Shown: piece after piece, positions 27,677 through 55,283 of the stretch | How the letters are laid out: each line of letters opens with the position of its first letter | How positions within the stretch are numbered: position 1 is the first letter of the stretch | DNA from: Acidobacteriota bacterium | Lineage (GTDB): Bacteria; Acidobacteriota; Terriglobia; Versatilivoradales; Versatilivoraceae | Direction of reading: 5' to 3' | Assembly (NCBI GenBank): GCA_022826755.1 | Contig: JAJDUG010000053.1 | Coordinates: forward strand, 1-64,000 | DNA length: 64,000 nt | Position numbers and translations under genes: made by a program | The notes under the pieces: model-generated | Database searches by the model: none | What the model was told of the DNA's origin: nothing | The model's input: only the letters and a program-made list of their open reading frames with translations

Positions 27677-30028
27677 TCACCAGTCGTCTTCTCGGGCCAT
27701 GCGGTAGCCGACTTGGCGTTCGGTAAAGATGTAGGTGGGGTGGGCCGCGTCATCGCCCAGCTTGCTGCGAAGTCTCTTAACAAAGGCGCTCACCAGTCGG
27801 GCGTTGCCGGATTCTGTCCGGGCCCACACCTGGCGCAGCAGGGATTCGTGGGTCATGACCCGTCCGGCGTTGACCGAAAGCACGCGGAGCAGATCGTATT
27901 CGGTGGCCGTCAGTTCCACCCGCCGTCCGGCCAGAGTCACCCGGCGACTTTCGTAGTCGAGCGACAGGTCCCCCAGCCTGAAGGGCTCCGACGGCCCAGT
28001 CCGGCTGCGCAGAGCCGCTTGCACTCTCGCCGCCAGTTCCGTCGGCGAGAAAGGCTTGACGATGTAGTCGGTGGCTCCCCTCCGCAGGGCCTTTGCAATC
28101 GTCTCGTCCCGTCCATAGCCCGAGATGAAGATGACCGGCAGATCGGCCATCTCCGGAAGGCTCTCCATCAACTCGATGCCATCGATTCCGGGCAGCACCA
28201 GGTCCAGCAGGACCAGTTGGGGCTTCTTGGTATTGATCAGCTGAGACACCTCCCGGGGATCTCCTGTCACAATCGGCGAGTAGCCCTCGGCCGTCAGAGC
28301 GTCCCGAACGGTCCGTAGGGTCAGCGGATCGTCGTCTATCACCAGGATGCGCGTTCCCTCCCCTGTTCCCCGAGGCGATCGTGAGGCACTCCGGGTGATG
28401 TCTGCGGTGGCACGGCTGGGGGGCTCTTCAGCTACCGGAATCGTGAAGGTAAAGCGTGCGCCCAACCCTGCTCCACCGCTCGCGGCCCGGATACGCCCTC
28501 CGTGGGCTTCCACCAACCCCTTGCAGATGGCCAGCCCCAGGCCGGACCCTCCGATCCCGGCCTCGCTGTCTCCCACGCGGGCGTACTTGCGGAACAGGCG
28601 CGGCAACTGGTCCGGCGGTATGCCGCGTCCTTCATCGGAGACCGAGATCGCCACGTGAAGTCCATCCAGCACGGCTGAGACCCGGATGGGTAATGTCGCG
28701 GGAGAGTGCCTCGAGGCATTGGAGAAGAGGTTGTTGAGAACCTGGACGATGCGGCGCCGGTCAGCCAGCACCCGGGGCAGGTCCGGAGGCAGATCGATCA
28801 GGATGGCATGGCGGCCGCCCCCACTCAGGAAGGTGTTCCTGGCCTGGTCCACCAGGTCGGCTACCTCGGTCGACTCCGTCGTGACCGACAGAGTACCCGC
28901 CTCGATACGGCCAGCATCCAGCAGGTCGCTGATCAGACCCTGCATGTGATCGGCTTGTTGTTCGATGATACGGAAAAACTGCGCCATCTCGGCAGGGTCC
29001 GGAGAGGCTTCCTTGACGGTGGCGGCCAAGCCCTTGATGGAGCTCAGCGGAACGCGCAGTTCGTGACTCACCAAGCTGAGAAACTCGGCCCGGGACCGCT
29101 CCAGTTGCTCCAGCGGGGCCATGTCCTGCAGGGTAACGATCACTGACTCGACCCGTCCCTCCTCGGAATGGATCGGCGTGGCGTTGATCAAGGTGGTGAT
29201 GCTCCGGCCGCCGGGGACCTCGAGCACGACCTCTTCGGCACGCACCGTCATTGCGCTGCTCAACACCTGCGGCAGGGAAGACTCGTCCAATGAGATTTCC
29301 CGTCCATCGGCGAACCGGCACTTCAATATCTCCGGCAACGGCCCCGCGGAGGGATCTTCCACACCCAGGCCCTTTGACATCCGCCGAGCCTCCCGATTGA
29401 ACAACGCCGGCTTTCCGGTCCGTGCATCGAAGACCGCTACGCCCACCGGCGAGGTATCGACCAGAGCCTCCAGATCCGTGCGGGCTCGATGCTCGTCACG
29501 GTAGGTGCGCGCGTTGGCGATGGCTGTGGCCGCCTGGGCGGCGAACAATACCAGCAACTCCTCGTCCTGGCTGGTGAACTCGCCTCCGCCGGCCTTCCCA
29601 GCCAGAAAGAAGTTGCCGACATGCACACCCCGGTGACGCATCGCCGTCGCCTGCACGGTCTTCGGCACGACCGGGTGCGGGGGAAAACCGAGCGACCGGA
29701 TGTAGCCGTGCAGGTCCTTCATGTTCAGTGTGCCTTCAAGGTCGCGGACGTGTTCGCACAACCGTGGCCCCTCGGCCCAGTCCAGCAACTGGCGGTGCTC
29801 TTCGCCGGTTAATCCGGAAGAGACGAAGTCGAAGGCCCCTCCCCCCTCGCCGGTGGTCACGATCCCACCATAGCGGGCGCCGGTCAGAGAGCAGGCGCTT
29901 TCAACCACCTCGCTCAGGACGGTGTTGAGGTCGAGGCTGGCGCTGATGCGCAGGATGGCCGCGCTCAGTTCGGAAATGCGGTTCCGAAGCATCTCGTTCT
30001 CTGGTTTCACGTCGTCGGGACGGTTCAC
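27677..30028 (-). CDS. Hybrid histidine kinase-response regulator with C-terminal DNA-binding domain (copy 2)
   Basis: A 783-residue paralogue of the kinase at 16424-18763, clearly similar along the whole length. The order is the same: coiled coil, GAF with HRGVHVGNFFLAGKAG, PAS-like, HisKA with SLVSHELRVPLSSIKG, HATPase with NNLFSNASRHSP and GSGLGLAICKGLVEAHGG, receiver with LVIDDDPLTL and LLDLVLPGIDGIE, and OmpR-type winged helix ending IFTERQVGYRM. I chose GTG at 30028, with a GGGGG Shine-Dalgarno-like run just upstream; this gives the same length as copy 1, while the open frame to 30205 adds an unrelated leader. It is divergent from the VWA gene and convergent with the giant gene. Confidence 0.87.
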   Translation of the reverse strand: MNRPDDVKPENEMLRNRISELSAAILRISASLDLNTVLSEVVESACSLTGARYGGIVTTGEGGGAFDFVSSGLTGEEHRQLLDWAEGPRLCEHVRDLEGTLNMKDLHGYIRSLGFPPHPVVPKTVQATAMRHRGVHVGNFFLAGKAGGGEFTSQDEELLVLFAAQAATAIANARTYRDEHRARTDLEALVDTSPVGVAVFDARTGKPALFNREARRMSKGLGVEDPSAGPLPEILKCRFADGREISLDESSLPQVLSSAMTVRAEEVVLEVPGGRSITTLINATPIHSEEGRVESVIVTLQDMAPLEQLERSRAEFLSLVSHELRVPLSSIKGLAATVKEASPDPAEMAQFFRIIEQQADHMQGLISDLLDAGRIEAGTLSVTTESTEVADLVDQARNTFLSGGGRHAILIDLPPDLPRVLADRRRIVQVLNNLFSNASRHSPATLPIRVSAVLDGLHVAISVSDEGRGIPPDQLPRLFRKYARVGDSEAGIGGSGLGLAICKGLVEAHGGRIRAASGGAGLGARFTFTIPVAEEPPSRATADITRSASRSPRGTGEGTRILVIDDDPLTLRTVRDALTAEGYSPIVTGDPREVSQLINTKKPQLVLLDLVLPGIDGIELMESLPEMADLPVIFISGYGRDETIAKALRRGATDYIVKPFSPTELAARVQAALRSRTGPSEPFRLGDLSLDYESRRVTLAGRRVELTATEYDLLRVLSVNAGRVMTHESLLRQVWARTESGNARLVSAFVKRLRSKLGDDAAHPTYIFTERQVGYRMAREDDW

Positions 30029-30477
30029 GTCATCCCCCTTTGATTGGGCCTCCGAGCCAAACCAGTTGAGCGTCGGCCAGGGGCAACTCGACGGAAGAGC
30101 CGGTTTCGAGTGCCTCCAATCTCCGATACTGTCGATTCTAGCAGTAATGGGACATAAATTCGCAACGTATTCACCTTGGCATTTATGTCTTCGTATTAAC
30201 GTCACATATATTTAGTAAGGTACACAGGCTTCTCGAGGTGGGGGCCTGTGGAAAAATCGCAGTCCCCGGTCGCGATGGAGCTTTCAGCCGGCAGGGCGTG
30301 CGACACAGCGGGGGCCGTGCCCGAGCTTGGTGTTCGTTCTCGCGATGCACGCATCCACGAATCCTGACTTGTCTGCCTCTCTGCTTACTCTGATTCGGAG
30401 ACATTCAAGCGGTTTCACGACCGTCTGCGATAGATCGCGCGACGATTCAACAACGAGGAAACACCTGGAGGCTTCCC
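30029..30477. other. Divergent intergenic region between hybrid kinase 2 and VWA gene
   Basis: About 450 bp. An AT-rich stretch at 30145-30225 would suit promoters in both directions. GGTACAC at 30219-30225 resembles one arm of the palindrome at 19073-19089. No gene or repeat was recognised. Confidence 0.4.
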
Positions 30478-31749
30478 ATAAGCGACATAGCAAGAGCAGC
30501 GATAACGGTCTTTGTGGCGATGGCCGCCATTGGCTGGGGGTCTGAGGCGCTTTCTCAAGGCCGTGGGCCGGTCCGAAGCAGCTTGCTGCTGCTGATCGAC
30601 GCCTCTGGAAGCATGGGCAACGAAATCGGGAGCGGCAATTCCCAGGTGAAGATCGAGGCCGCCAAGCAGGCTGCAATCGATGCCTTGGGCAGGGCCGCCA
30701 AGAGCGGCTCGGTCGAAGTGGCGGTGCTGGCCTTCAGCGGTGACTGCCAGAACCCTGTCCCGCGCTATCAGGATTTCACTGGTGACGTCAATCGGCTCAC
30801 CCAATTCATCGGCAGCCTGCAGCCGGGTGGCGGCACGCCGATGGCCGACGCTCTGCTCTTCGCCAATCGCTACATGGACAAGAACGGAGACGCCGGCGCA
30901 TCCACCCGGATGATCATGCTGCTGGCAGACGGCCAAAACGACTGCGGCGACGTCGATCAGGCCATGGCCAGCCTGAAGTCGAGCGGGATCGTCTTTCGCC
31001 ATGAGACCGTGGGGTTCGGCATCGCTCCCAACTCCCGGGCCGCCCAGGACCTGCGCGACATTGCCACGCAAACCGGGGGCGCCTACCACCATGCCGTCGA
31101 CGCCAACCAGCTTGCGGACGTATTCATGGAGTTCGTGGACACCTTTACGGTCATCGATATGCTGGGAATGTTCGGCCGCAGTGGTGAAAGCGCATCGGCG
31201 ACAATTCAGTCAGAGCAGCCCAAGGACAAACAAGCGCCGTCTGCCGCCCCGACGCCTTCCCAACCGGCATCCGGTCAGGTGACAAGCATGCTCGGCCTGT
31301 TCGAGCCCAAGCAGGCTGTTGCGAAGACCGGCGGCTCGGGTGAGTTCTACGTTGCCGTTGCAACCGAACTTGCAGGCCGGCAGCTTGCGGTCGGGCCGGG
31401 GTTCAGGTGGCACTACGCGACCGGATGGAGTGTGGATTCGGGCCACGAAGCGGGACAGGCGGCTGAAGCGGCGTGCAGCAAGAGCTCCGGAACCACGTGT
31501 TGGCACGAGGGGCTATCTTCCATGAAGGGAGGATGCGTGGCCATGGTCGAGGGGACATGGCGTGACCAGGACGAACCGCAACCGGAGCTGGACGTGTTCG
31601 TAGATACCAGTCAATCCCGAAGGAGTGCGGAATCAGGGGCTTTGCGTCAGTGTAAGGTTGAGATTCATGCGGGGAAGTACCAGGGAACCGTTCAGGAGTA
31701 CGAGTGCATCCTGAAGGTTTCATTCTGTTCGGAAGATGTCAGACCTTGA
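30478..31749 (+). CDS. Secreted VWA-domain protein with DUF4189-like C-terminus
   Basis: The VWA domain has an intact MIDAS: DASGSMG, the threonine of GGTPMADAL and LLADGQNDCGD, indicating a divalent metal-dependent protein-binding module. After a Pro/Ser linker, the C-terminal part (from about 31338) has spaced small residues and cysteines (AEAACSKSSGTTCW and GGCVAMVEG), similar to DUF4189. The first standard start is GTG 30514, which cuts into the signal peptide. In-frame ATA at 30478, preceded by GGAGG with 6 bp spacing, would give a complete signal peptide (DIARAAITVFVAMAAIGWG). I annotate from ATA as an inference. It is 16 bp upstream of the FGE-like gene and forms a two-gene operon with it. 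Confidence 0.75.
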   Translation: MSDIARAAITVFVAMAAIGWGSEALSQGRGPVRSSLLLLIDASGSMGNEIGSGNSQVKIEAAKQAAIDALGRAAKSGSVEVAVLAFSGDCQNPVPRYQDFTGDVNRLTQFIGSLQPGGGTPMADALLFANRYMDKNGDAGASTRMIMLLADGQNDCGDVDQAMASLKSSGIVFRHETVGFGIAPNSRAAQDLRDIATQTGGAYHHAVDANQLADVFMEFVDTFTVIDMLGMFGRSGESASATIQSEQPKDKQAPSAAPTPSQPASGQVTSMLGLFEPKQAVAKTGGSGEFYVAVATELAGRQLAVGPGFRWHYATGWSVDSGHEAGQAAEAACSKSSGTTCWHEGLSSMKGGCVAMVEGTWRDQDEPQPELDVFVDTSQSRRSAESGALRQCKVEIHAGKYQGTVQEYECILKVSFCSEDVRP

Positions 31750-31765
31750 GGATGGGAGAGAGGCC

Positions 31766-33187
31766 ATGAGGAAAGTGATCGGCAGCGTTGTGCTTGCAGC
31801 CTTGCTTGGTGCTTTCATGGAGGCGGCCACCCAACTCCCGCCTGAGATCATGGCCGACCGCTACCTGGTGGAGGCGGAACGGCTGATGAAAGAGAAAGAG
31901 TTCAAAGCCGCTCTGGAGGCCATGGAGAAGATCGTGGCGCTGCAAAAGGAGCACGATCTATCGTTGCCTGCCGAGTTCCACTTCAAGTATGCGCAGATTG
32001 CCCAGTCGGCCGGCTTGCTCGAGGCTGCGATTGACGCTGTGAACCGATATCTGGTGGCGGCAGGGAGGGCAGGCAAGTTCTATCGGGAGGCGCTGGAGTT
32101 GCTGGACCAAGCGGAGCTGAAACAGGCCGAGTTATTGGAGGAGGCGGAAAAGAAGCAGGCTGAGCGGATAAGGGCTCAGGAAGAAGCAGACAAGCATCTG
32201 GCTGAAGCGTTGCGGCTGATTGGTGAAAAGAAGTACAAGGACACGGTTGACGTGGTCAATTCCATACTTAATTTGCGAAGGCAACATGATCTCACCTTAC
32301 CCAACGAGGTCCACTTTGTTGTTGCACGGGCGGCGTTGTCTGTGAATAGGTTCAAGCTCGCTAAGGACGCGGCGAACCAGTACTTGTCTGTGGCCGGGAC
32401 GTCAGGCAAGTACTACGGGGATTCGCAGGAGTTGTTGGAGGAAGTCCGCGCAAAGATACGTGAGGAAGCCCGCGCAAAGTGGCTGAGTCCGAACGAGATG
32501 GTGGTGATTCCCGGGGGGCGTTTTCAGATGGGCTGCCTGTCCGGCAAAAGCTGCGGACGGGACGAGAAACCGGTGCATGAGGTGAGGATGGCGTCGTTTG
32601 GGATGTCGAAGTATGAGGTGACGTATGAGGAATACGATCGTTTTACGGCTGAGACGGGCAGAGCACGGGCGGAGGACAAAGGCTGGGGGAGGGGGAGGCA
32701 TCCGGTGATCAACGTTTCCTGGGAAGATGCGGTGGCTTATACGAAGTGGCTGTCGGAAAAGACGGGGGAGCGGTACCGGTTGCCGAGCGAGGCCGAGTGG
32801 GAGTACGCGGCGCGGGCGGGATCGACGACGAAGTATAGCTGGGGAAACGAGATTGGCCACAACCGAGCCAACTGCGATGGCTGCGGAAGCCAGTGGGATA
32901 ATGAGAAGACGGCGCCTGTGGGCTCATTCAGCCCCAACGCCTGGGGCCTGCATGACATGCACGGCAACGTGTGGGAGTGGGTGGGGGACTGCTGGAACAA
33001 GAGATACAAGGGTGCGCCGACGGATGGCTCTGCCTGGGAAACCGGCAACTGCGAGAGTCGCGTGTTGCGCGGCGGTTCGTGGAGCAACCAACCTGAGTTC
33101 CTCCGCGCTGCCATCCGCTACTGGAGCTCCACCGGCGCTCGGTACTACAGCTTCGGTTTCCGTGTGGCCCGGACGCTCACCCCTTGA
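31766..33187 (+). CDS. Secreted FGE/SUMF1-like protein with N-terminal helical repeats
   Basis: 473 residues. Signal peptide MRKVIGSVVLAALLGAFMEA, then two ~85-residue helical repeats (RYLVEAERLMKEKEFKAALE and HLAEALRLIGEKKYKDTVD, each followed by a LP-x-E-x-HF segment), a charged helix between them, and an FGE-sulfatase domain (from about residue 244): MVVIPGGRFQMG, EVTYEEYDRF, HPVINVSWEDAVAYTKWLS, RLPSEAEWEYAARAG, GLHDMHGNVWEWVGD, RVLRGGSWSNQPEFLRAA. The two catalytic cysteines of true formylglycine-generating enzymes are absent from the RGGSW segment, so a sulfatase-activating role is unlikely; a binding or other oxidase-like role is possible. It is linked to the VWA gene. Confidence 0.82.
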   Translation: MRKVIGSVVLAALLGAFMEAATQLPPEIMADRYLVEAERLMKEKEFKAALEAMEKIVALQKEHDLSLPAEFHFKYAQIAQSAGLLEAAIDAVNRYLVAAGRAGKFYREALELLDQAELKQAELLEEAEKKQAERIRAQEEADKHLAEALRLIGEKKYKDTVDVVNSILNLRRQHDLTLPNEVHFVVARAALSVNRFKLAKDAANQYLSVAGTSGKYYGDSQELLEEVRAKIREEARAKWLSPNEMVVIPGGRFQMGCLSGKSCGRDEKPVHEVRMASFGMSKYEVTYEEYDRFTAETGRARAEDKGWGRGRHPVINVSWEDAVAYTKWLSEKTGERYRLPSEAEWEYAARAGSTTKYSWGNEIGHNRANCDGCGSQWDNEKTAPVGSFSPNAWGLHDMHGNVWEWVGDCWNKRYKGAPTDGSAWETGNCESRVLRGGSWSNQPEFLRAAIRYWSSTGARYYSFGFRVARTLTP

Positions 33188-33246
33188 ATCTTCAACTCTT
33201 TACCTCGGGGGTCCAGGCCCTTGTAATTGCGAAGGGGTTCTCACCG

Positions 33247-33478
33247 TGTGAAAACAGGGGACGTTGTTGAATAAGTGGAAATATCGGGAGGGCGATTCTG
33301 TGATGCCTTGCATACGGCCTCGCGGACTCGATTCCGCGTGGTGTGACTAGCTTTGCTGCGAACCGGCCGCTTTCAGCCAAGCTTGACGGGGCGTCGGCAG
33401 CTCTTTTTCTGCCATCCAAGACTCCGAAGCCGGAACAAAGTTATTCCAGTAATTCAACAACGTCCCCTTGCTTTTCCC
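33247..33478 (+). mobile_element. MITE-like element, copy 2
   Basis: A 232 bp copy with the same terminal inverted repeats (TGTGAAAACAGGGGACG and CGTCCCCTTGCTTTTCCC) as 27379-27611, in the same orientation. The two copies bracket hybrid kinase 2 and the VWA/FGE operon, a span of about 5.6 kb. Confidence 0.75.
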
Positions 33479-33541
33479 GTGCTCCCACGGGCTGCCTTCC
33501 CGGCAAACCTCCCGCTGTCAGCCGATTGCTGCAAAAGGCTC

Positions 33542-33613
33542 GACCACAAAAGCACAAAAGGCACAAATTGAGATTCGAGACGTGTCTATGGGTGTTTTGT
33601 GCCTTTTGTGGCC
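33542..33613. repeat. GGCACAAAA hairpin repeat, copy 1
   Basis: An inverted repeat: ACCACAAAAGCACAAAAGGC near the left end and GTGCCTTTTGTGGCCATTC at the right. An inverted copy lies at 55193-55283 with matching ends. The transcript of either strand would fold into a hairpin. Confidence 0.65.
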
Positions 33614-33757: not shown

Positions 33758-34918
33758 ATGTCGAAACAACGGAAGTTCAAGGTCTACCTTGCTGGCCCGA
33801 TCAGTGGATGTAACCGGGTCCAGGTGCGCCGGTGGCGCGAGGAAATCGAGCAGAAGTACGACAAGGATTTTGAGTGTAGTGATCCCAGCAAGTATATATA
33901 TCCCAATGAGATAGACTCCAGTGAGGCGTCATCGGGAGAGAAAAAGACAACCCCTTCCCAAATTGTTGAAGCTGATCTCTCTTTGATCGGAAAGGCGGAC
34001 GGACTGCTCGCGAACATGTGGCGTGAATCCATAGGAACCGCCATTGGCATTGTCCACGCAAACTTGGCAGGGAAACCGGTGGTTGTCGCTGATCCGAACC
34101 ACCTGGGCAGCAAGACACTTGCCTTCTACGCGGATAGGGTGGAGGAGACGCCACTGAAGGCCGCGACATTCCTGCGGAAACTCTTGCGCACCGAGGCGAA
34201 GTGGAGCGTCCTAAAATCGTCTGGGCGAGTGGAGTCGTTTAACCGCCGGAAGTTAATGGACGCAATCCGCTCGGCCTGCCGTAACGCCAAGTGCGATGAC
34301 GTCGTGGGGCCGAGGCTCGTTTCGTCGAAAGTGATCGGTCGGTTGCAGGAGAGTAGCCGAAGTTTGAAGGAGCAATTTCCAACAACGCAGCTCGATGATG
34401 TGATCCGGGAGGCATTGAAGGAACTCGAAAATGACTTTAAGGCCATTGAGGGAGTTTTGTCGACATGGGAGCGCCTCCGGGAAGAGGAGCAAATCGGCTT
34501 TCCGTTACAATCTCCAAGCAGTGCAGCGTTCCAAAAACCAGCGACCCAGGCTCGTGTTGAAATCTCTACAGGGGGGAGGAAGAACCACGCCACGATTTGG
34601 GGAAAGCCGGTGAATCAACTCCGCGATATTCCGTCAGCTCGGGCCCGTCGCGTGTTCGAGATCATCGGCGAGACCCACGGCATCACGCGGATAACCCTGG
34701 GACCTAAAGGTCAAGGTAATAAAGAATCCCGATCCTCTTGCAAGGCAACCGTCAATACGTCCAAGACGCTTGGAGTCATCGAAGGAAAACTGTTCGACCC
34801 TAAGGGAGCGGAAGGAACGATGCAGACGTTTCAGGTAAGGGTACAATACGAGTCCGACAAGGGAGCGATTCTGAAAGACATCATCAAGAAACTGGAGGAG
34901 GGCGATCTTCTGGCCTGA
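33758..34918 (+). CDS. Nucleoside 2-deoxyribosyltransferase-like domain fused to an ATP-cone-like domain
   Basis: 386 residues, no signal peptide. Residues 8-135 resemble the nucleoside 2-deoxyribosyltransferase fold: KVYLAGPISG at the start, IVEADLSLIGKADGLLANM and SIGTAIGIVHANLAGKPVVV. In catalytic members the nucleophilic glutamate lies in GTA-x-E-IG; here it is Gly (GTAIGIVHA), so hydrolysis or transfer is doubtful. Residues 148-222 (KWSVLKSSGRVESFNRRKLM, then a helical stretch ending TTQLDDVIREAL) fit the ATP-cone, the allosteric nucleotide sensor of ribonucleotide reductases. Residues 275-386 are unrecognised. GC content is visibly lower than in neighbours, which suggests transfer. It is convergent with another gene of the same superfamily. 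A role in sensing nucleotides is an inference. Confidence 0.6.
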   Translation: MSKQRKFKVYLAGPISGCNRVQVRRWREEIEQKYDKDFECSDPSKYIYPNEIDSSEASSGEKKTTPSQIVEADLSLIGKADGLLANMWRESIGTAIGIVHANLAGKPVVVADPNHLGSKTLAFYADRVEETPLKAATFLRKLLRTEAKWSVLKSSGRVESFNRRKLMDAIRSACRNAKCDDVVGPRLVSSKVIGRLQESSRSLKEQFPTTQLDDVIREALKELENDFKAIEGVLSTWERLREEEQIGFPLQSPSSAAFQKPATQARVEISTGGRKNHATIWGKPVNQLRDIPSARARRVFEIIGETHGITRITLGPKGQGNKESRSSCKATVNTSKTLGVIEGKLFDPKGAEGTMQTFQVRVQYESDKGAILKDIIKKLEEGDLLA

Positions 34919-35010
34919 CGGGCCGTCCGCAATTCCCACGTCCGCAAGTGCGTTCTATAACGATAGGCGGACCGTCAACATGAAGGGGCTTCACTGTCGA
35001 AAACGCAACA

Positions 35011-35487
35011 CTACCTGCCGCTCAACCATTGGGCCAGCGCTTTGTCCGGGTCTGCCAGTTCCTCCATCGAGGTGTACCAACTGGATTCCCAGCCATTTTC
35101 CGGAAGTCCGGTGAATACCATCAGGTTGATGGGGTAGCCCTCGCTGTCGGTGCAGCGACGGAAGTCGTCCCGGAAGAGGAACACCGGCTTATTCCAGGCG
35201 ATCGCCATTCCCAGTTCCACCATAACGCCTTCGTCGGGTGGACAGCCGTTGACCACTGCAAACAGCCCATCCGCTTCCCGTACGTCGCGAAGGTCGGCCT
35301 GGCCGATCCGATAGGCCCAGTTGGGACTGCTCCGGTCGATCTGGTTGTTACGGGCAAAGGGCTCCCAGACTTCGGCTCCCATCGACTCCAGGGCCGATAC
35401 CAGTTCCTGCAGCGGACCCCGGCGCTGCTGAGCCGAAAATCCGTAGGGATTGGCCAGATACAGGGTCTTGGGATTCGTGGTGTTCAT
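35011..35487 (-). CDS. Nucleoside 2-deoxyribosyltransferase family protein
   Basis: 158 residues from ATG 35487. Visible motifs are TLYLANPYGFSAQQR at the N-terminus, WEPFARNNQ, READGLFAVVNG, and PPDEGVMVELGMAIAWNKPV, in which the glutamate of VELG fits the catalytic nucleophile. The family cleaves or transfers N-glycosidic bonds of (deoxy)nucleosides or nucleotides. A reading from 35544 adds 19 unconserved residues. It is convergent with the cone-fused relative that lacks this glutamate, 92 bp away. The pairing of an active and an inactive-looking member is notable. Confidence 0.75.
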   Translation of the reverse strand: MNTTNPKTLYLANPYGFSAQQRRGPLQELVSALESMGAEVWEPFARNNQIDRSSPNWAYRIGQADLRDVREADGLFAVVNGCPPDEGVMVELGMAIAWNKPVFLFRDDFRRCTDSEGYPINLMVFTGLPENGWESSWYTSMEELADPDKALAQWLSGR

Positions 35488-55192: not shown

Positions 55193-55283
55193 ATGGCCGC
55201 AAAAGGCACAAAAACACAAAAAGAACCATCGGATCGGCAAGACTCGAAATCAAGAAACTCGTTTTGTGCTTTTTGTGGCGAAT
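55193..55283. repeat. GGCACAAAA hairpin repeat, copy 2
   Basis: Left arm TGGCCGCAAAAGGCACAAAA, right arm GTTTTGTGCTTTTTGTGGC. On the opposite orientation to the copy at 33542-33613, with GTGCCTTTTG(T/C)GGCCATT at the matching end. Confidence 0.65.

What the first reader, a model, noticed from the sequence alone, without database searches (positions are those of the whole stretch)
33758..35487. Convergent pair of deoxyribosyltransferase-fold proteins, one fused to an ATP-cone and lacking the catalytic glutamate
The first gene combines an NDT-like domain (KVYLAGPISG, SIGTAIGIVHANLAGKPV) with an ATP-cone-like segment (VLKSSGRVESFNRRKLM) and an unrecognised ~110-residue C-terminal domain. The position of the nucleophilic Glu is Gly. 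The facing gene of the same superfamily keeps it (VMVELGMAIA). ATP-cones sense dATP/ATP in ribonucleotide reductase and NrdR. A cone on an inactive base-binding fold beside an active relative suggests a nucleotide-pool sensor-effector pair, possibly in defence or stress. Lower GC than neighbours and flanking mobile-like repeats support transfer.
Basis: partly seen in the sequence, partly recalled or inferred. Interest (0 to 1): 0.68.

Follow-up and report, generated by a model that had tools for sequence, protein, structure and literature searches.

The report
ATP-cone fused to dead nucleotide hydrolase
This bacterial gene makes a protein that joins a nucleotide-cutting fold that has lost its cutting residue, the ATP/dATP-sensing domain of ribonucleotide reductases and an unknown third domain; the same rare protein occurs in unrelated bacteria without the neighbouring gene, so it is probably a stand-alone nucleotide sensor of unknown output rather than half of a two-gene system.

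Summary
The sequence observation holds. ORF 33758-34918 (+, 386 aa) is an NDT/DNPH1-fold domain (residues 7-148), an ATP-cone (149-226; Pfam E=1.4e-7, above cut-off) and an orphan alpha-beta4-alpha domain (266-386) with no match in Pfam, PDB or viral structures. The nucleophile position (Gly97) is Gly in every cone-fused relative examined, while Tyr10, Asp73 and phosphate-binding Ser91 are invariant; stand-alone relatives keep the Glu. The ATP-cone keeps most nucleotide-contacting residues.

The "sensor-effector pair" is not supported. Relatives in six phyla lack the facing NDT gene, except one congener. Congeners keep the NDT gene without the fusion; one shows a stop-containing fusion remnant at the site, another a remnant pair elsewhere. 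The flanking palindromic repeat is a genome-wide dispersed element (29 copies).

New here: rarity and phyletic scatter; a second architecture with the same sensor module and a different C-terminus; and a mosaic between congeners, with the sensor part at 50% protein identity but the C-terminal domain at 72%, the most discordant of 105 pairs.

Best reading: a stand-alone nucleotide sensor in which a dead nucleotide-hydrolase domain and an ATP-cone gate an unknown output domain. A defence role is possible but weakly supported. New variant of a known kind; interest about 0.5.

The parts
33758..34918 (+). Fusion gene: NDT/DNPH1-like domain, ATP-cone, orphan C-terminal domain (386 aa)
   Evidence: ORF; AlphaFold2 mean pLDDT 84.9 on 16 homologues
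33776..34201 (+). NDT/DNPH1-fold domain, residues 7-148; keeps Tyr10, Asp73, Ser91
   Evidence: PF05014 5.7e-5; Foldseek to NDT, DNPH1 and BcmB, prob 1.00; residue table
34046..34048 (+). Codon of Gly97 at the position of the catalytic Glu (human DNPH1 E104)
   Evidence: Gly in 15/15 fused proteins; Glu in stand-alone relatives; register to Rcl/BcmB
34202..34435 (+). ATP-cone, residues 149-226; V151, K153, E159, K165 match NrdR V48, K50, E56, K62; NrdR R51 is Ser154 here
   Evidence: PF03477 1.4e-7; NrdR profile match; Foldseek; residue table; NrdR contacts from PMC9110341
34493..34552 (+). Low-confidence linker, residues about 246-265
   Evidence: pLDDT below 50 for residues 247-264
34553..34915 (+). 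Orphan C-terminal domain, residues 266-386, alpha-beta4-alpha, motifs HxTIWG and GxxQxFQ
   Evidence: Domain model pLDDT 85.9, pTM 0.81; no Pfam, PDB or BFVD match; not found outside the fusion in 347 genomes of the phylum
35011..35487 (-). Facing NDT-family gene with catalytic Glu; present in most congeners with or without the fusion
   Evidence: PF05014 8.7e-29; genus survey
33552..33611 (.). Inverted repeat (GCACAAAAGGCACAAA ... TTTGTGCCTTTTGTGG) upstream of the fusion
   Evidence: 29 dispersed copies in the genome; also upstream of the fusion in congener G297

Best explanation
The 386-aa protein is a stand-alone nucleotide sensor with three parts. (1) A DNPH1/NDT-fold domain has lost its nucleophile but keeps the sugar/acid and phosphate residues, so it should bind, without cleaving, a nucleoside 5'-monophosphate. 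(2) An ATP-cone should bind ATP or dATP and set the oligomeric state, as in NrdR and ribonucleotide reductase. (3) An orphan C-terminal domain is the output. Adenine-nucleotide status plus a monophosphate ligand would gate that output. Shown: the domains, the loss of Glu together with conserved ligand-shell residues, the conserved cone residues, C-terminal exchange in a second architecture, patchy cross-phylum distribution, and no conserved partner gene. Inferred: ligand binding, oligomer switching and what the output does.
For: Pfam and Foldseek assign both known domains. Tyr10, Asp73 and Ser91, equivalent to human DNPH1 Y24, D80 and S98 (functions from PMC10603095), are invariant in 15/15 while E104 is Gly in 15/15, so the fold is conserved as a binder rather than decaying. 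Stand-alone Planctomycete and phage relatives keep Glu in nearly the same motif. Cone positions V151 and K153 are invariant, E159 is kept in 13/15 and K165 in 12/15; the equivalents in NrdR contact nucleotide or are needed for its binding (PMC9110341). A second architecture joins the same NDT-cone module to a different C-terminus. No neighbour family with a plausible link recurs across 18 loci within 10 kb (shared ORFs lie between closely related loci or are scattered), and the NDT partner is missing elsewhere, which favours a stand-alone role.
Against: No ligand, oligomer or activity has been measured. The phosphate-contacting Arg of NrdR (R51) is Ser in the window and variable in the family, so cone binding could be weak or altered. 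Trp88, invariant and in the active-site loop, could block ligand entry, making the NDT part only a dimerisation scaffold. Another residue could in principle restore catalysis; Glu90 is not a universal substitute (Ala or Pro in three members). Higher dN/dS than neighbours (0.44 against 0.09 and 0.17) and remnants in congeners also fit relaxed constraint.
Confidence: 0.5

Rival explanations
1. Antiphage or stress effector: the NDT-cone module senses infection-related changes in nucleotide pools (dNMP release, dATP/ATP shift, modified phage nucleotides) and the exchangeable C-terminal domain acts as toxin or effector.
For: Rare, patchy, cross-phylum distribution; fast evolution and remnants in congeners; C-terminal exchange; neighbours include Fic genes with PADLOC SoFic or PDC-S04 matches at two loci, both divergent with a gap of about 245 bp, a PDC-S01 ATPase plus type II RM at one locus, and a PIN gene at another; sensor part swapped or diversified between congeners.
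Against: No PADLOC hit for the protein itself; most loci sit beside housekeeping genes; no viral or phage match beyond the bare NDT fold; no background rate for defence neighbours was measured; the C-terminal domain has no known toxin fold.
Confidence: 0.2
2. Two-gene nucleotide-pool system: the active NDT (35011-35487) makes or removes the ligand sensed by the cone-fused dead paralogue.
For: Convergent adjacency in the window and congener G297; a remnant of the fusion next to the intact NDT in G300 and next to an NDT remnant in G299 suggests the pair is ancestral in the genus; G315, outside the family, carries both genes, unlinked.
Against: No NDT relative in the flanks held of the other fusion loci; four congeners keep an intact NDT at the same site without an intact fusion; the genes are convergent, not an operon; very different constraint (dN/dS 0.09 and 0.44).
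Confidence: 0.12
3. A transcriptional or enzyme regulator of nucleotide metabolism of the NrdR kind, with the C-terminal domain as DNA- or protein-binding part.
For: ATP-cones control oligomerisation in NrdR and ribonucleotide reductase (PMC9110341); the family profile's best PDB sequence match is NrdR.
Against: No Zn ribbon or other DNA-binding domain recognised; neighbours are not nucleotide-metabolism genes and are not conserved; distribution too patchy for a housekeeping regulator (3 of 347 genomes).
Confidence: 0.15
4. Decaying genomic passenger without a current function in this genome.
For: Remnants in G299 and G300, a split gene in a Fimbriimonadaceae genome, a frameshifted second-architecture copy; omega 0.44.
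Against: Intact ORF in the window and in most relatives; more than 20 invariant residues across the family; omega below 1.
Confidence: 0.1

Closest known systems
DNPH1/Rcl (2'-deoxynucleoside 5'-phosphate N-hydrolase) and CMP N-glycosidase BcmB
   Same: Fold of residues 7-148; equivalents of Tyr24, Asp80 and phosphate-binding Ser98 kept
   Different: Catalytic Glu104 replaced by Gly in every fused member; fused to an ATP-cone and an extra domain
YtoQ (PDB 8of6)
   Same: Best sequence-profile match of the NDT part in the PDB (9e-8); also departs from Glu (Asp in the printed alignment)
   Different: Stand-alone 170-aa chain, no ATP-cone
NrdR
   Same: ATP-cone with conserved V, K, E, K positions
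   Different: NrdR is Zn ribbon plus cone and represses nrd genes; no Zn ribbon here
ATP-cone of ribonucleotide reductase (NrdA, NrdB, NrdD)
   Same: Cone fold and likely ATP/dATP binding
   Different: No reductase domains; cone lies in the middle of the chain
Stand-alone Planctomycete NDT-like proteins (L077-L087)
   Same: Closest Glu-keeping relatives found, same motif layout
   Different: No cone, no C-terminal domain, catalytic Glu present

Membership tests
ATP-cone (PF03477) | Profile match above the curated cut-off | tested here: met
   32.4 bits against 25.8; 16 of 16 family members match at E<=0.01
ATP-cone (PF03477) | Cone fold | tested here: met
   Foldseek probability 1.00 to NrdB, NrdA, NrdD and NrdR cones
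ATP-cone (PF03477) | Nucleotide-binding residues (NrdR V48, K50, R51, E56, K62) | tested here: inconclusive
   V151, K153, E159, K165 kept; R51 equivalent is Ser154
ATP-cone (PF03477) | Binds ATP/dATP and changes oligomeric state | not testable with these tools
   Needs purified protein
Nucleoside 2-deoxyribosyltransferase / DNPH1 (PF05014) | Fold | tested here: met
   Top Foldseek matches
Nucleoside 2-deoxyribosyltransferase / DNPH1 (PF05014) | Profile match above the curated cut-off | tested here: not met
   23.7 bits against 28.8
Nucleoside 2-deoxyribosyltransferase / DNPH1 (PF05014) | Catalytic nucleophile Glu | tested here: not met
   Gly97, Gly in 15/15; hence the fold, not the enzyme family
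Nucleoside 2-deoxyribosyltransferase / DNPH1 (PF05014) | Tyr, Asp and phosphate-binding Ser | tested here: met
   Y10, D73, S91 invariant
NrdR | N-terminal Zn ribbon | tested here: not met
   The N-terminus is the NDT-fold domain
Known defence systems (PADLOC-DB 2.0.0) | Profile match of either protein | tested here: not met
   No family up to E=1
Two-gene NDT/fusion system | Conserved adjacency of both genes | tested here: not met
   Only in congeners

The most novel reading that the evidence does not exclude
A new class of modular nucleotide sensor-effectors: a catalytically dead DNPH1-like domain serves as receptor for a nucleoside monophosphate (perhaps phage-derived or modified), an ATP-cone reads ATP/dATP, and exchangeable C-terminal domains act as outputs in stress or phage defence, with the sensor part diversified or replaced by recombination between related strains.
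Probability: 0.2. Interest if true: 0.78.

Novelty: new variant of a known kind. Interest (0 to 1): 0.5.

Why it matters
Well-characterised ATP-cones regulate ribonucleotide reductases or their repressor. A cone on a dead nucleotide-hydrolase fold would be a further use of this sensor and would suggest two nucleotide signals read by one chain. The family is defined well enough to be cloned and assayed at once, and its C-terminal domain matches nothing in the libraries searched, so a structure would probably give a new fold or an unforeseen output.

Tried and rejected
(1) Conserved partner gene: all-against-all comparison of ORFs within 10 kb in 18 loci found none beyond closely related pairs and scattered common families. 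(2) Fic as general partner: motif scan of all loci found Fic at only two distinct loci, of different Fic types. (3) C-terminal domain as known fold: Pfam, PDB sequence, Foldseek PDB and BFVD, all without a significant match. (4) C-terminal domain as separate protein: none in 347 genomes of the phylum or in viral contigs. (5) Phage or plasmid carriage: no phage match; one plasmid match to a bare NDT domain only. (6) Repeat as a mobile element carrying this gene: 29 dispersed genome copies. (7) Glu90 as substitute nucleophile: Ala or Pro in three members. (8) Recent acquisition by the window's species: rejected, because G297 has the gene at the same site and G300 a remnant there. (10) Literature for the fusion: nothing found.

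Full report
OBSERVATION. The two ORFs lie where stated, tail to tail with 92 bp between them. The first (33758-34918, +) has an ATP-cone above Pfam's curated cut-off (E=1.4e-7, residues 151-225) and a weak, sub-threshold NDT match. With an alignment of 16 homologues AlphaFold2 gives mean pLDDT 84.9. Foldseek against the PDB returns NDT, DNPH1/Rcl and BcmB for the N-terminal part and the ATP-cones of NrdB, NrdA, NrdD and NrdR for the middle, all with probability 1.00. The second ORF is an ordinary PF05014 protein (8.7e-29) that keeps its Glu.

THE FAMILY. One scan of 84,980 species genomes gave 16 loci coding for relatives of the query, most of them full length, in Acidobacteriota, Gammaproteobacteria, Nitrospirota, Gemmatimonadota, Armatimonadota and Planctomycetota. 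It is rare: 3 of 347 genomes of the own phylum for the C-terminal domain; for the NDT-cone module 5 of 343 in the Planctomycete centre's phylum, 2 of 201 and 1 of 185 in two further groups, the seed genome included in each. A 100/100 clade of ten mixes Acidobacteriota, Gammaproteobacteria, Nitrospirota and Gemmatimonadota, which suggests transfer, although binning errors in metagenome-assembled genomes cannot be ruled out for each case.

LOSS OF THE NUCLEOPHILE. Profile alignment to Rcl and BcmB fixes the register. Human DNPH1 uses Y24, D80 and E104 for catalysis and S98 for the phosphate (PMC10603095). In the fusion the equivalents are Tyr10, Asp73, Gly97 and Ser91. Across 15 members Tyr, Asp and Ser are invariant and the Glu position is always Gly; the second-architecture proteins also have Gly. 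Stand-alone relatives, from Planctomycetes (VNYSKASVGTSMEVFYA) and from viral contigs, keep Glu. Loss of Glu thus goes with the cone fusion, with the rest of the ligand shell under constraint: this looks like a pseudoenzyme receptor, not a decayed enzyme. That it binds a monophosphate is inference.

THE ATP-CONE. In NrdR K50, R51 and E56 contact the inner nucleotide and K62 the outer one, and mutating V48, K50, E56 or K62 impairs binding (PMC9110341). By the printed alignment the window has V151, K153, Ser154, E159 and K165; V and K153 are invariant in the family, E159 is kept in 13 of 15 and K165 in 12 of 15, while the R51 position varies.

THE THIRD DOMAIN. Residues 266-386 form a confident alpha-beta-beta-beta-beta-alpha domain (pLDDT 85.9, pTM 0.81) with conserved HxTIWG and GxxQxFQ motifs. 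It has no significant match in Pfam, PDB sequences, PDB structures (best E 0.12) or viral models (best E 0.024), and was not found apart from the fusion. Two Terriglobia genomes carry the same NDT-cone module with a different C-terminus (L066, L067), so the module is combined with more than one output domain.

THE PAIR. Across the fusion loci with flanks, the NDT gene occurs only in the congener G297/L014. In the genus of seven, an intact NDT is found in six genomes, and in the five examined besides the window it lies on the same syntenic block; an intact fusion occurs in two. In G300 an 80-bp fusion remnant with an in-frame stop lies directly beside the NDT; in G299 a 185-bp remnant lies beside an NDT remnant at another locus. 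The pair is therefore probably old in this genus and was broken several times, the NDT surviving alone. It is not a general system.

MOSAIC DIVERGENCE. Window and G297 are 83% identical in the upstream non-coding stretch, 80% in the C-terminal domain, 84.5% in the NDT gene and 86% in the next gene, but only 62-67% in the NDT-like and cone parts; the breaks fall near the start codon and near residue 280. At protein level N is 50% and C is 72%, the largest discordance of 105 pairs (z 3.9). The pairs are not independent and other L014 pairs follow next in the ranking, so part of the effect may be acceleration on the L014 side. The remnants in G299 and G300 resemble L014 (85-86%) more than the window (70-73%). 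Synonymous divergence is also higher in the cone (1.36) than in the C-terminal domain (0.38), which favours replacement by recombination over selection alone, but with two sequences this is not settled. In trees of each part the two remain sisters (92/91 and 91/95).

NEIGHBOURS AND DEFENCE. Most neighbours are housekeeping genes: succinate dehydrogenase-like, GlmS-like, SurE, sulfatase, histidinol dehydrogenase, ROK. Exceptions: Fic genes immediately upstream and divergent at L015 and L021; a PDC-S01 ATPase next to, and a type II RM system within 2 kb of, the fusion at L016; a PIN gene near the fusion at L020. This is suggestive but no background rate was measured. PADLOC has no model for the protein.

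REPEATS. The palindrome upstream (33552-33611) exists in 29 places at up to one mismatch, against 0 for the reversed control, so it says nothing about this gene's mobility.

CONCLUSION. I favour a stand-alone nucleotide sensor with an unknown output (0.5), ahead of a defence effector (0.2), an NrdR-like regulator (0.15) and the proposed pair (0.12); these overlap, since a stand-alone sensor could serve defence. No paper on the fusion was found in the library searched.

Noticed in passing
L066 1447-2691; L067 1540-2568: Second architecture in two Terriglobia genomes: same NDT-cone module, different unrecognised C-terminus. The L067 copy appears frameshifted near its N-terminus; its neighbourhood (L094) holds a helicase-like gene and what looks like a transposase fragment (by eye).
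   Followed up: partly
L015 8867-9757; L021 8607-9755: Fic-family genes immediately upstream of and divergent from the fusion in a gammaproteobacterial and an acidobacterial MAG, with nearly equal gaps of about 245 bp, of different Fic types.
   Followed up: partly
L016 8510-14740: Fusion homologue flanked by a PDC-S01-type ATPase on one side and an HNH gene, a type II restriction enzyme and a methyltransferase on the other (Nitrospira MAG).
   Followed up: partly
L058 9359-9829 (G315): An NDT gene 84% identical in protein to window 35011-35487 in a genome of another family without surrounding synteny; the same genome carries the fusion on another contig.
   Followed up: partly
window 33552-33611 and 55197-55278: Palindromic TTTGTGCCTTTTGTGG repeat pairs, 29 copies genome-wide at up to 1 mismatch.
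   Followed up: yes
window 28000-33482: This stretch has no counterpart beside the conserved 35-44.7 kb block in any congener stretch fetched, so a synteny break lies at the fusion's left edge.
   Followed up: no
L060 280-387; L061 9014-9121: Short matches to NDT residues 120-155 only, at other loci of two congeners; perhaps eroded NDT copies.
   Followed up: no
L015, L016 record titles: Bin names STY2 and RHO3 suggest sponge metagenomes (recall, not verified), which could explain gene sharing across phyla.
   Followed up: no
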